64,000 nucleotides of DNA from a virus, in the IMG/VR virus record IMGVR_UViG_3300044712_001062, positions 1 to 64,000 of that record. One strand, written 5' to 3'. Below, piece by piece: positions 1 through 29,498 of this stretch. The notes below the pieces were generated by a model, which was not told where the DNA came from, searched no databases, and saw only the letters and a program-made list of their open reading frames with translations. The translations under genes and the position numbers were made by a program. The stretch's first letter is position 1. The number at the start of each line of letters is the position of its first letter.

Positions 1-2
1 TT

Positions 3-44
3 GACCAGATCTGGGCGTTGATGGACGACACATTTATATATTGA
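3..44 (+). CDS. C-terminal end of a + strand gene (partial)
   Basis: An open frame enters from the left edge and stops at TGA 42-44, leaving 13 residues that end ALMDDTFIY. It is in the same direction as the next small gene and, with it, suggests that the region left of the window is transcribed rightward, opposite to almost everything else here. Too short to identify. Confidence 0.45.
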   Translation, partial: DQIWALMDDTFIY

Positions 45-110
45 TTAGGCAAATATTAAATAGTAAATGAGGTTAATTCTGATACTAAAACGTTTTAGTA
101 GGTAATTATC

Positions 111-401
111 ATGGGAAAATTAGTACAGGCAGCCACAGAGGCTTTTAACAACTGGAAAGCAACCACCCCAGTTACAATTGATGCATATGACAAGATTTCA
201 GACGAAGATGTCATTAGCAACTACCGCACTGAACAGAAATACCTTATTGGCATTCGTGATGCAACTGAAATCGAAAGTTCATTTTATGCTGCACGAACTG
301 AAGCCCTTCAAGCACTTGAAACCAAACAACTCGCTGAACGTCAAGCCCTTGCAGCACTCTGGCAAGCAAAGGAAGATGCCGATTATGATGTCGATGCTTG
401 A
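111..401 (+). CDS. Small hypothetical protein, possibly virion-associated
   Basis: A 96-residue acidic, largely helical protein with Ala/Glu/Gln-rich segments in its second half. No recognised domain. It follows the partial gene at the left edge, on the same strand, and precedes a run of micro-ORFs. Its composition would fit a small tail-assembly or fibre-associated protein, but that is a guess from the strand and location only. Confidence 0.6.
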   Translation: MGKLVQAATEAFNNWKATTPVTIDAYDKISDEDVISNYRTEQKYLIGIRDATEIESSFYAARTEALQALETKQLAERQALAALWQAKEDADYDVDA

Positions 402-2935: not shown

Positions 2936-4105
2936 TTATTCGTCAAGGAATATGTCGTTTCCTCGAATTGTAATCATTCCATATCTTTTCATTTCTTCAA
3001 GTTTATCATAGAGTGATTGTGCGGACATCTGAACTTGGAAACATACCGTATTAAGATAATTTCTTGTTATCATTATACGACCATCATCTGTGGTAGTTCC
3101 ATAAACCCTAATCAAATTAATTACTTGTTTAAGATCTGGGCCGGTAATGATATCCCTACGCCATTCGAATTGCTTATTTAATATGTCCATTAACCCTTTG
3201 TCTTGAACATCAAGCATTATACTAGTATCTGCACCATATTTTGCCAAATGCCAACCAAGGATCAGTTTGGCGTATGATGAAATTTCATAAGGTTCAATAT
3301 CAAATTTTTCATAAAGGTGGAATACTGATTCATCATAATCGATATTTTCAATAGAATTAAAACTTGTTGTCCACGTCTTAATGGCATCTTTCATCTCGTG
3401 GATTTGCTTAACGTCGGGTCGTTTATTTCGAGAATCCCAGACAGCCCTACGTAAATCACTTTTCAATTTGGCATCTGGTAAATTCAATAAAAAGCAAATA
3501 CGACGACCCATACCACTGCCCAATTCATATTTTGCAGGCTGAACACCGCCCCACAAAGTACAATATGTTTGATATTCTATATCTCCACCAGCAACAGATT
3601 TGCGAACTTCTCCATGATCAAGGGCTGCCAATAATTGAGACTCCATCTGGCTATTAAATGATTGGCCCATTGCATCAGTAATTCCTTTGAATTCATCCAT
3701 CATCAAAAAGCCTTGGCCATGTGTTTCGAATTTACCTTCTCTTTTTACATAATTACCATGGCTTGGTGTATAAGTTCCAACTAATGATGCTTCATTGACA
3801 TTTTGACACTGAATCATTTCATAATTACAATTGCCGAATATAGAATAGTCATCCATTCCCATATTTTTCAAGTAATATGATTTCATGTATCCAGGAGGAG
3901 CCACAAATATAATATGTAATCGCATATTTGGAATTGCATAAGACTCCCAATAGACCTTTCGGCCTTGATTCATGACATTAAAAGCGTGTATTGCATAGGA
4001 GCAAACATATGGCGGGGCATAAGTTTCATAGGATAAAGTCCCTCTCTGTTCCAGATTATCTAATATCATCTGCATTACATCTGGATTATTGGACACTTTA
4101 CTCAT
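2936..4105 (-). CDS. MCM-like AAA+ ATPase (putative replicative helicase)
   Basis: The frame extends to 4291, but the upstream part is noncoding-like. ATG 4105 has GGAG 9 nt upstream and lies just downstream of a TATA box at 4139-4149, giving 389 residues. Walker A is PPGYMKS (70-76), Walker B LMMDEF (134-139), then an S-V-A-G-G-D helix-2-insert-like region (about 170-175) and a GMGRR arginine-finger-like segment (198-202). The layout resembles the MCM ATPase core followed by a C-terminal winged-helix-like tail, without the usual N-terminal DNA-binding domain. Likely role: unwinding at viral replication forks. Diverged, so another AAA+ helicase family is possible. Confidence 0.65.
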   Translation of the reverse strand: MSKVSNNPDVMQMILDNLEQRGTLSYETYAPPYVCSYAIHAFNVMNQGRKVYWESYAIPNMRLHIIFVAPPGYMKSYYLKNMGMDDYSIFGNCNYEMIQCQNVNEASLVGTYTPSHGNYVKREGKFETHGQGFLMMDEFKGITDAMGQSFNSQMESQLLAALDHGEVRKSVAGGDIEYQTYCTLWGGVQPAKYELGSGMGRRICFLLNLPDAKLKSDLRRAVWDSRNKRPDVKQIHEMKDAIKTWTTSFNSIENIDYDESVFHLYEKFDIEPYEISSYAKLILGWHLAKYGADTSIMLDVQDKGLMDILNKQFEWRRDIITGPDLKQVINLIRVYGTTTDDGRIMITRNYLNTVCFQVQMSAQSLYDKLEEMKRYGMITIRGNDIFLDE

Positions 4106-4214: not shown

Positions 4215-4559
4215 ATGAATGTATTAATGATTGCAGGACCACCAACATTTACAGATCGTGAAGTCATAGCCGATAACCTAATAGATGCCATGTTATGGGC
4301 AAATCCCTCACAAATAATTACCAGTGATCAGTTAGGTGTTGATGAAATCATAACACAATTAGTCACATCATATACTAATATAAAATTTTCAAAATACTAC
4401 ATATATAAGGATAAATTTGGAAAATCGGCATTACCAATCGCATTATTTGAAATGACCGCAAAAGCCACTCACATATTAATCTTTGATGATAATAAAATGA
4501 CTGACGTTGAATATTTCGCCAATAGAAATGGCTTGATGATTATGAAAGTTAAAGTATAA
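4215..4559 (+). CDS. DUF2493/SLOG-type nucleotide-binding protein
   Basis: 114 residues from a leaderless ATG. It begins MNVLMIAGPPTFTDRE, then QIITSDQLGVDE in place of the family's IVSGGARGAD, a K-FGK-ALPIA segment matching the DUF2493 W-K-GK-AGPIRN region, and THILIFDD. This is a Rossmann-like (LOG/DprA superfamily) fold that binds nucleotides or nucleotide-derived ligands; DUF2493 proteins are common in phages and have been proposed as nucleotide sensors. The usual GG is replaced by S-D. Only interior gene on the + strand, followed by two ncRNA candidates. Confidence 0.65.
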   Translation: MNVLMIAGPPTFTDREVIADNLIDAMLWANPSQIITSDQLGVDEIITQLVTSYTNIKFSKYYIYKDKFGKSALPIALFEMTAKATHILIFDDNKMTDVEYFANRNGLMIMKVKV

Positions 4560-4579
4560 AACAGTTATCATTTTCTAAA

Positions 4580-4700
4580 TGGTTAAATGAGGGAGCAAAA
4601 CCCAAATAACCAATACTGAACTAGTTGAGAGTATCCCTGGTCAGCGAGGAAATCAATCCTCGAAATCGACAGGTTAAGCACACAACACGCCCGTCAAAAT
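4580..4700 (+). ncRNA. Candidate three-hairpin ncRNA
   Basis: A TATA-like agtataaaa (4553-4562) predicts a start near 4580-4583. Pairings visible: 4580-4585 with 4607-4612 enclosing GGG/CCC (4591-4593/4601-4603); 4613-4617 with 4630-4634; 4636-4639 with 4670-4673 enclosing a 5-bp hairpin 4645-4649/4658-4662. No ORF. G+C is locally above the surroundings. No known family recognised. Confidence 0.4.
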
Positions 4701-4744
4701 AATATAAAATTTACCAACATATAAAAGAGATGTAACAAAATGTT

Positions 4745-4850
4745 GCGAGGGGGTAGAGATCGTGATTATAGCCCCTCATGTGATGTAATGTCATTATTAG
4801 TTTTAATTCGGGAATAATGAAACTAATTTGTGATCTCTACACAATAATAT
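4745..4850 (+). ncRNA. Candidate pseudoknotted ncRNA
   Basis: TATA box acatataaaa at 4717-4726 places the start at about 4745-4748, exactly at the first paired base. GAGGGG 4747-4752 pairs with CCCCTC 4772-4777; GTAGAGATC 4753-4761 pairs with GATCTCTAC 4832-4840 (9 bp), an interleaved, pseudoknot topology. Between them ATTAGTTT 4796-4803 pairs with AAACTAAT 4820-4827, in competition with CATTATT 4792-4798 / AATAATG 4813-4819. No coding potential. Function unknown. Confidence 0.5.
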
Positions 4851-4908
4851 ATGCTTTTATGTTATATAAATTTTGTCATATTAATGTATGAAAAACTTAA
4901 ACGATCTC

Positions 4909-5586
4909 CTATAGCCAGTCGTTGGATTTTCCAATTAGGATATTTTTAATATTTCGTTCCTTGACTTTACCAATGCCTTGGACTTTAGTTAGATCAGCAA
5001 CATTCGCAATATACGTGAGATCAGTTCCATACATCTTGCGGATATTTGACCATTGAATCATAGTGATGTTTAAAAACCTGGAAATTAATGCATCTAAATT
5101 TCTTTGGGCGACAATATCCAAATTGCCTTCGCAAATTTTCATTCCAACTTTAATGGATCTTTTAACGCCATTGAGGTGATCATTATCTACTAAAACTCTA
5201 ATATTGTAGCGAACCATCACACTGGCAATTATAGAATCGAAAATTTCAGGTTTAATATCAACATGTTTAACTCTTTTCATATAATTACAATATTCAGTTA
5301 TATCACCTGAAACCAATAATATTACCACACTATCAGTTTGATGAGTAGTGAGCCTTGCACATTGCGAGGGAAATCTAGGTTTTTTACCTTTACTGCCCAT
5401 CACTGATCCATATAAATCAGCAACGGTCTTGCGTTCAACCAATACTTTCATTGACCCCTCATTCTCACAGTGGATCAATATATCTCCTTCTTTTAAGGCA
5501 ACTTCCTTGAATTTTATATTTGGAAATTCCTTGATAATTTTCTTCCTGAAGTCTGCTGGTTCACGAGTATCCAATATGACTTCCAT
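4909..5586 (-). CDS. XPF/ERCC4-type structure-specific nuclease
   Basis: 225 residues from ATG 5586 (a GTG at 5595 overlapping the upstream stop is an alternative). Catalytic signature: LDTREP (D6, R8, E9), GDIL (34-37) and VERKTVAD (ERK 51-53, D57), the ERCC4 GDx-ERKxxxD motif. The C-terminal ~55 residues contain helix-hairpin-helix segments (VQGIGKVK). Archaeal XPF/Mus81 proteins cut 3'-flap and fork junctions next to PCNA. Single-module, without an SF2 helicase, as in the short euryarchaeal or viral forms. Probably acts in viral replication-fork repair or recombination. Confidence 0.85.
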   Translation of the reverse strand: MEVILDTREPADFRKKIIKEFPNIKFKEVALKEGDILIHCENEGSMKVLVERKTVADLYGSVMGSKGKKPRFPSQCARLTTHQTDSVVILLVSGDITEYCNYMKRVKHVDIKPEIFDSIIASVMVRYNIRVLVDNDHLNGVKRSIKVGMKICEGNLDIVAQRNLDALISRFLNITMIQWSNIRKMYGTDLTYIANVADLTKVQGIGKVKERNIKNILIGKSNDWL

Positions 5587-14301: not shown

Positions 14302-14979
14302 TTAATTTTGAGGTTCGATCATTGGACTTATTAAATACTTGGCATTTAAATTCTCACTACTAAATATAAATCCTAATGGCGTATTGTTACCCAATAACAT
14401 TTGATGAGTTGTATATGCTTTGTAACTTGTAAAGATGTCCTTGAGATAATCACCTTTAACCTTGGTGTAAAGTTCACCATCATTAGGACATTCGAATTCA
14501 ACGCAAGTAGCCAATTTATCTTTCACACAATCATCAACAGTAATTATATGATTTTTCAAATTAAATGCATATTCCTTTTCATTCTTTGCGATATCATAAA
14601 TTTCCTTGACATTTTCAATAGTCAAATTTACCACTTCATGTGGCCATTTAATTGGTAAAGATTCCTTCGTTTTAATCGTTGGATCACAAGTAATCGGTAA
14701 AGTGTATTTAGTACTTCCACATTTAAACACAACTTTATTCCCATCAATATTCAACTCCGCAACATCACCCTTAATAGATTTTAACTCATTTACATCAAAT
14801 TGCAATACAATTTCCTTTGAGCAGATCATTTTGTTAGTGATATGAACAAAGCAAATGTTTGCAGTGTCAGCCTGACAAATTTCAATTCCATCGGGTTTTA
14901 CTTGCGCATTTATAGTGTATAGTGTTCCCAAACTTGATAACCACTCTTTAAAATTTGGAATTGTAGTTATGTGTTCCAT
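14302..14979 (-). CDS. PCNA-like sliding clamp 1
   Basis: 225 residues, PCNA length. N-terminal FKEWLSSLGTL helix and VKPDGIEICQADTANICFVHI strand pair match the first half of PCNA, and the C-terminus SSENLNAKYLISPMIEPQ matches the YLLAPRIE tail. The clamp tethers polymerase B, XPF and other partners to DNA. More diverged than the second clamp at 28773-29498; the two could form a heteromeric ring or serve different complexes. Confidence 0.75.
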   Translation of the reverse strand: MEHITTIPNFKEWLSSLGTLYTINAQVKPDGIEICQADTANICFVHITNKMICSKEIVLQFDVNELKSIKGDVAELNIDGNKVVFKCGSTKYTLPITCDPTIKTKESLPIKWPHEVVNLTIENVKEIYDIAKNEKEYAFNLKNHIITVDDCVKDKLATCVEFECPNDGELYTKVKGDYLKDIFTSYKAYTTHQMLLGNNTPLGFIFSSENLNAKYLISPMIEPQN

Positions 14980-28772: not shown

Positions 28773-29498
28773 TCACTCTGTTTCGATTCTTGGGGCTATA
28801 AAGTAATATCCACAAGGATTTCCAGCAATGTTCAAAGCAATCCTACATGGTCTATCATCGCTAAATGAAAAGTCTACTGTACCTTTTACAATTTTAAATG
28901 CTGTATTGATGTAGTCCATGGAATACAAACACCATTGATCATTGTCTTTTACAATACCATTGTCAATTACAAAATTCAACACATAATCATTGTCTTGCTG
29001 ATCAAGTGATTTTATTACAGTTTTATCATTAGTAACTATGAATTTAACTTTATCAGCAATCATCGATGCGCCTTTTAAATACTTACGCATATCACTGGAT
29101 GAAATCAATACACTAGCATTCATTGACATTTCATAAAGATTGTTGACAATGGGATCTTTTTTGATATTTTCATTATCCAGGCTTTTCATGACCATTTCAT
29201 ATTTTCCACTTCGAAAAGTCAATTTATTTTCATCCTGGATAATGGTAACAAATCCATAACACATCTCCATAAATGGCTTGAGTTTTTCCAAATCCAAACA
29301 AATAACTTGATTAATTAGATTATATTGCTCAAAGGAGGTTCTTGGATACTCAAAGTCAATTAACATGACATTTGCCAAATCACTGGTTTTACACCAAATT
29401 CTATCAGGAGTAATATGCAAGCGAACTTCATTACGCACTTTACAAATTAAGTTTATAAAATCTCTAAAATCCAAATACTTTAAAATAGCACTTTGCAT
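28773..29498 (-). CDS. PCNA-like sliding clamp 2
   Basis: 241 residues. N-terminal FRDFINLICKVRNEVRLHITPDRIWCKTSDLANVMLIDFEY matches PCNA domain 1; VICLDLEKLKPFM; the C-terminus YYFIAPRIE is the canonical archaeal PCNA ending. Closer to cellular PCNA than clamp 1. May be the principal processivity clamp, with clamp 1 as partner or specialised form. Confidence 0.85.
   Translation of the reverse strand: MQSAILKYLDFRDFINLICKVRNEVRLHITPDRIWCKTSDLANVMLIDFEYPRTSFEQYNLINQVICLDLEKLKPFMEMCYGFVTIIQDENKLTFRSGKYEMVMKSLDNENIKKDPIVNNLYEMSMNASVLISSSDMRKYLKGASMIADKVKFIVTNDKTVIKSLDQQDNDYVLNFVIDNGIVKDNDQWCLYSMDYINTAFKIVKGTVDFSFSDDRPCRIALNIAGNPCGYYFIAPRIETE

What the first reader, a model, noticed from the sequence alone, without database searches (positions are those of the whole stretch)
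4745..4850. Compact pseudoknotted RNA with mutually exclusive hairpins
TATA geometry puts the 5' end exactly at the first paired base. GAGGGG/CCCCTC and the 9-bp GTAGAGATC/GATCTCTAC interleave (pseudoknot), and two internal hairpins of 8 and 7 bp compete for 4796-4798, as in switching RNAs. No coding potential; lies downstream of the SLOG/DUF2493 gene.
Basis: seen in the sequence. Interest (0 to 1): 0.7.

Follow-up and report, generated by a model that had tools for sequence, protein, structure and literature searches.

The report
Orphan pseudoknot RNA in archaeal virus
A 94-base stretch between two genes of an unclassified archaeal virus can fold into an unusually stable, strand-specific knotted RNA with a plausible promoter, but it is found in no relative and shows no sign of being a switch, so it is at best a small orphan RNA of unknown partner.

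Summary
The described helices exist exactly as stated (4747-4752/4772-4777; 4753-4761/4832-4840; the two competing hairpins). The window lies in a 135-kb archaeal tailed-virus record. Ordinary folding is unremarkable (z about -1.9). With a crude pseudoknot-aware score, the element is the best intergenic case in the record: -31.4 kcal/mol, 7-9 below its best unknotted fold. None of 400 shuffles of the element reached it. In about 5.7 shuffled copies of all gaps, one window matched the energy gap and none matched gap and stability together. The signal is on the + strand only (minus strand -19.2). A TATA box projects the start to 4748 +/-2, close to the first paired base (4747). The "switch" reading fails: the 7-bp hairpin has probability 1e-4 against 0.9998 for its rival, and no co-directional gene lies downstream. 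No Rfam family matches. Covariance models and pattern scans found no copy in related viruses; the syntenic ERCC4-ATPase gap is absent or unrelated in them. Best reading: an accessory orphan small RNA, unproven; chance folding is the main rival. A TATA box on the opposite strand projects to 4840, the other boundary, so an antisense or DNA-level role is not excluded.

The parts
4720..4727 (+). TATA box (TATAAAAG) that would drive the + strand RNA; projected start 4748 (about 4746-4750)
   Evidence: Motif and spacing of 29 nt calibrated on the record's own genes; chance of such a motif in a 5-nt slot is 2.8%
4747..4752 (+). P1, 5' strand GAGGGG
   Evidence: pair probability 0.996 in the nested ensemble
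4772..4777 (+). P1, 3' strand CCCCTC
4753..4765 (+). P2, 5' strand: GTAGAGATC (9 Watson-Crick pairs) plus GTGA (4 pairs, three of them G-U), directly abutting P1
4828..4840 (+). P2, 3' strand (4832-4840 GATCTCTAC Watson-Crick; 4828-4831 the extension), directly abutting P3
4780..4794 (+). Small 5-bp hairpin (4780-4784/4790-4794) that fits in the linker when the P2 strands are kept for P2
   Evidence: constrained fold
4796..4827 (+). P3 hairpin, 8 bp extending to 10 (4796-4805/4818-4827), loop 4806-4817
   Evidence: pair probability 0.9998
4792..4819 (+). Alternative 7-bp hairpin CATTATT/AATAATG that overlaps P3; not competitive
   Evidence: pair probability 1e-4
4863..4870 (-). TATA box TTTATATA on the opposite strand; projected start 4840, the outer edge of P2
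4575..4700 (+). Separate G+C-rich stretch with three or four hairpins between the SLOG-like gene and the TATA box; folds better than shuffles (z -3.1)
4221..4559 (+). Upstream small SLOG/DUF2493-like gene (112 aa); assignment weak
   Evidence: PHROG 289 E 1.9e-5, no Pfam or NCBIfam match; weak homologues elsewhere in two relatives
4909..5586 (-). Convergent ERCC4-type nuclease gene on the other side
   Evidence: Pfam PF02732 E 2.7e-11
2936..4105 (-). ATPase-like gene that follows ERCC4 in relatives; the element sits in an accessory slot between the two

Best explanation
The segment is an accessory small non-coding RNA of an archaeal tailed virus, about 94-110 nt. It would be transcribed on the + strand from its own TATA box and begin at or within about 2 nt of G4747. 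P1 and P2 share one continuous 5' strand and interleave, so the RNA closes into a pseudoknot; a 10-bp hairpin (P3) stacks on P2 and presents a 12-nt loop. Inferred function: the 5' end is buried in P1 and the 3' part in P2, which would make a nuclease-resistant RNA acting in trans (antisense or protein binding) rather than a cis-acting switch. Shown: the pairings, the strand-specific predicted stability, the promoter geometry, the absence of a downstream gene. Inferred: transcription, the 5' end, the actual fold, and any function.
For: A pseudoknot-aware score puts it 4.1 sd below its own shuffles (0 of 400) and far below the opposite strand (-31.4 against -19.2). It ranks first of all intergenic windows by energy gap and fourth by energy, and no shuffled intergenic set matches both together. 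It has the strongest P1+P2 stacking in the record. P2 extends through G-U pairs that exist only on the + strand. A TATA box lies at the right spacing. There is no coding frame. It lies in a long intergenic gap.
Against: No homologue anywhere that was searched, so no covariation. The 17 hits of the exact pattern in bacterial and archaeal genomes equal the chance expectation (about 17) and none carries the P2 3' strand. Genome-wide, including coding DNA, 13 of 11,248 windows reach the same energy. The nested fold is ordinary. With a higher pseudoknot penalty and no stacking bonus, the knot is weaker than the unknotted fold. An equally good TATA box points the other way. No transcript data.
Confidence: 0.42

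Rival explanations
1. Chance complementarity in A+T-rich intergenic DNA: the stems are fortuitous and the TATA box is one of several that such sequence contains; nothing functional is made.
Against: Best of all intergenic windows by pseudoknot gap, unmatched jointly in about 5.7 shuffled sets; strand asymmetry; TATA box at the right distance (2.8% by chance).
Confidence: 0.36
2. DNA-level or antisense arrangement: convergent promoters at the two edges (TATA boxes at 4720 and 4870) with the 9-bp inverted repeat GTAGAGATC at or just after both start sites, either as an operator pair for a regulator or giving overlapping sense and antisense RNAs.
For: Projected starts 4748 (+) and 4840 (-) bracket the element within 1-2 nt; the inverted repeat is perfect.
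Against: The repeat arms lie at different offsets (+6 and +1) from the two projected starts; TATA-like motifs are common here (seven in 420 bp); the minus strand folds poorly; no similar sequence elsewhere in the record.
Confidence: 0.12
3. Structured 3' end or terminator region between the convergent SLOG-like and ERCC4 genes rather than a separate RNA.
For: It lies between convergent genes; the adjacent stretch 4575-4700 is also structured, and 4587-4593 can pair with 4773-4779.
Against: No terminator-like stem with a T run; it starts about 190 nt past the SLOG-like stop codon, after two TATA-like boxes; SLOG-like homologues in two relatives have no such region.
Confidence: 0.1

Closest known systems
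H-type pseudoknots with a hairpin in the third loop (the layout of c-di-GMP-II and preQ1-II riboswitches, from general knowledge)
   Same: Two interleaved stems with an extra hairpin in the loop between the P1 and P2 3' strands
   Different: No Rfam match at E <= 10, no gene downstream on the same strand, no evidence of ligand or switching
HDV-like self-cleaving ribozymes
   Same: P1 of 6 bp at the very 5' end, P1 and P2 5' strands nearly continuous, a variable P4-like hairpin before the P2 3' strand; R2 ribozymes have P1 of 6-7 bp, P2 of at least 5 bp and a variable P4 (PMC3774820)
   Different: Only 10 nt (6 with the extended P2) between P2 and P1', with no P3 stem or L3 loop; those regions are the conserved core (PMC3774820). 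No Rfam match
Archaeal H/ACA guide RNAs (from general knowledge)
   Same: ACA directly follows the 9-bp stem, and the upper stem P3 ends 13 nt before it
   Different: 34 nt on the 5' side of the would-be pocket, no kink-turn seen by eye, no Rfam match

Membership tests
H-type pseudoknot | Two stems whose strands interleave | tested here: met
H-type pseudoknot | Knotted fold more stable than the best unknotted fold and than shuffles | tested here: met
   -31.4 against -24.3; 0 of 400 shuffles; crude energy model, and the result depends on the penalty and coaxial stacking assumed
H-type pseudoknot | Compensatory changes in both stems across relatives | tested here: inconclusive
   No homologue found; relatives too distant
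HDV-like ribozyme | P3 stem with L3 loop between the P2 5' strand and the P1 3' strand | tested here: not met
   Only GTGATTATAG lies there and its ends do not pair; core features from PMC3774820
HDV-like ribozyme | Covariance-model match | tested here: not met
Cis-acting riboswitch | Lies in the 5' leader of a gene on the same strand | tested here: not met
   The next gene (ERCC4) is convergent; the neighbouring long ORFs downstream are on the minus strand
Cis-acting riboswitch | Two mutually exclusive structures of comparable stability | tested here: not met
   Hairpin probabilities 0.9998 and 0.0001; the knotted and unknotted uses of the P2 strands do compete, but without an output gene
Cis-acting riboswitch | Match to a known family | tested here: not met
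Intrinsic terminator | G+C-rich stem followed by a T run | tested here: not met
   0 found in 4540-4930
Archaeal H/ACA RNA | Kink-turn in the upper stem and guide match to rRNA | not tested
   No kink-turn by eye; the host is unknown, so no rRNA target could be tested
Repeat hairpin family of this record (TATTTGTATGTGCC) | Conserved leader TTGTATGTRCC | tested here: not met
   Twelve copies elsewhere in the record, none at 4560-4908

The most novel reading that the evidence does not exclude
A new class of archaeal-virus small RNA whose 5' end is locked in a pseudoknot from the first transcribed nucleotide, giving a nuclease-resistant trans-acting RNA carried as an accessory element between conserved replication genes.
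Probability: 0.12. Interest if true: 0.65.

Novelty: new member of a known kind. Interest (0 to 1): 0.33.

Why it matters
Small structured RNAs of archaeal tailed viruses are hardly described: a full-text search for archaeal virus, pseudoknot and non-coding RNA together returned two papers, a general review of viral RNA structure prediction and a paper on Fanzor. If transcribed, this would be a testable example with an unusually exact 5' end. If not, it is a calibrated case of how convincing a chance pseudoknot can look in A+T-rich intergenic DNA.

Tried and rejected
Rfam at gathering and at E <= 10: nothing. Single-protein scans of viral contigs with ERCC4, the SLOG-like protein, DNA polymerase and the ATPase found nothing; the terminase gave one relative and alignments of the polymerase and the ATPase gave more, but none has the element. 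Covariance models of the element and of 4575-4700 hit only the own record. Exact-pattern scan of viral contigs: 0; of genomes: 17, the chance number, none with the P2 3' strand. HDV-like ribozyme rejected for lack of P3/L3. Cis riboswitch rejected for lack of a downstream gene and of hairpin competition. An automatic promoter motif search drifted to the Shine-Dalgarno signal and was not used; the simple TATA count was used instead. Structure prediction of the SLOG-like protein gave pLDDT 42 and was discarded.

Full report
What the sequence is. The window is the first 64 kb of a 135,061-base virus record. It encodes a family-B DNA polymerase about 25% identical to those of halovirus tailed phages, an anaerobic ribonucleotide reductase, an ERCC4-type nuclease and a dCMP deaminase, and, further on, genes that I read as a terminase and structural proteins (the terminase is supported by weak matches to annotated terminases). 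This is an archaeal tailed virus (inference) with no close relative in the collections: single-protein scans with four proteins found none and the terminase gave one, 51% identical. Alignment-based scans found a few more distant relatives.

The observation. Three details strengthen the fold. P2 goes on for four more pairs through G-U pairs possible only on the + strand. The P3 hairpin extends to 10 bp and directly abuts P2. A 5-bp hairpin fits into the remaining linker. Thus 4747-4840 holds four nearly contiguous helices with few loose bases.

Chance. Ordinary folding does not single the element out: z is -1.8 to -2.1, and 11% of intergenic windows of the record are below -2. By pair count, 6+9 bp pseudoknots are expected 3.6 times per record by chance. 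By stacking energy this is the strongest of the record, with 0.18 expected per simulated genome. I then wrote a crude pseudoknot-aware score (stem stacking, nested folds in loops, a 9.6 kcal/mol penalty, 1.5 for a flush junction). The element scores -31.4, against -24.3 for its best unknotted fold and -19.2 for the opposite strand; its shuffles average -18.1 (sd 3.2), and 0 of 400 reach it. Over all intergenic windows it is first by gap to the unknotted fold and fourth by energy. Shuffled intergenic sets, about 5.7 of them, gave one window with as large a gap and none with both gap and stability. Over the whole record, coding DNA included, 13 of 11,248 windows reach the same energy. So it is the best candidate of its kind in the intergenic DNA, with a genome-wide chance that I put at roughly 5-20%, before the promoter is counted (my estimate).

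Promoter. The record's own genes show an excess of WTATAWW about 29 nt before start codons, the expected signature of leaderless genes. Applied to TATAAAAG at 4720, this puts the start at 4748, give or take 2, close to the first paired base 4747. A study of Methanolobus reports promoter elements about 19-22 nt from the start (PMC5378194), which agrees. A motif in a 5-nt slot has a 2.8% chance here. However, TTTATATA on the opposite strand projects to 4840, the outer edge of P2, so the element is bracketed by two inward-facing candidate promoters.

Is it a switch? No support. In the nested ensemble the 8-bp hairpin has probability 0.9998 and the 7-bp one 0.0001. There is no gene downstream on the same strand to control: ERCC4 is convergent and the neighbouring long ORFs are on the minus strand. 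No riboswitch model matches.

Relatives. The element lies between the ERCC4 and ATPase genes. In one relative (G002) these overlap with no gap. In L102/L103 (ATPase 53% identical; one difference in 7,146 bases between the two) the gap holds unrelated small genes. In L105 and G001 the gap is unrelated sequence. None of these gaps has a comparable pseudoknot. SLOG-like homologues sit elsewhere in G001 and G004, without such a region. Covariance models of the element and of 4575-4700 hit only the own record. An exact pattern of P1 plus the P2 5' strand has no hit in viral contigs and 17 in genomes, about the number expected by chance for 257 billion bases, none with the P2 3' strand. The slot is therefore a variable accessory site, and the element is an orphan.

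Mechanism. The most likely reading, at 0.42, is an accessory + strand small RNA with a knotted, end-protected fold that acts in trans. Transcription and function are inferred. Chance (0.36) is a serious rival. The convergent-promoter or antisense reading (0.12) and the 3'-end reading (0.10) remain open.

Known families. The layout recalls HDV-like ribozymes, but the P3/L3 core is missing: only 10 nt lie between the P2 5' strand and the P1 3' strand, whereas P1.1, P3 and L3 are the conserved parts of that family (PMC3774820). It recalls riboswitch pseudoknots with a hairpin in loop 3, but the setting excludes a cis switch on the + strand. It is not an intrinsic terminator by consensus scan.

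Other observations. The record carries a 12-copy family of hairpins with the conserved leader TATTTGTATGTGCC, with stems that differ between copies but stay paired; one copy is in a relative. The stretch 4575-4700 just upstream of the element is itself more structured than shuffles (z -3.1).

Noticed in passing
window 2342(-), 13483(-), 23175(-), 36310(+), 37522(-); record positions 82548(+), 82922(-), 90076(-), 95730(-), 104221(+), 104481(-), 124065(-); L102 6829-6839(-): Twelve intergenic copies of (T)ATTTGTATGTGCC followed by a long purine/pyrimidine hairpin, mostly ending TTTGTTTAGAG; stem sequences differ between copies but remain paired, and one copy occurs in a related virus. Looks like a family of small hairpin RNAs or terminators.
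   Followed up: partly
window 4575-4700 (+): G+C-rich stretch with three or four hairpins between the SLOG-like gene and the element, z -3.1 on the + strand; no Rfam match and no copy in relatives.
   Followed up: partly
window 4863-4870 (-): TATA box TTTATATA facing into the element; projected start 4840 is the outer edge of P2.
   Followed up: partly
L002 13108-14489 (record 77108-78489): About 1.4 kb without ORFs of 60 aa or more, holding tRNA-Leu(caa) and strong hairpins at 78058-78190 (-); another strongly structured G+C-rich stretch lies at 78820-78930 (+).
   Followed up: no
window 1-174 and the end of the record: The last 40 bases recur at position 135, so the record closes on itself imperfectly; probably a complete, circularly permuted or terminally redundant genome.
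   Followed up: no
window 14302-14979 and 28773-29498 (-): Two different proteins that look like sliding clamps (PCNA-like) by eye in one virus.
   Followed up: no
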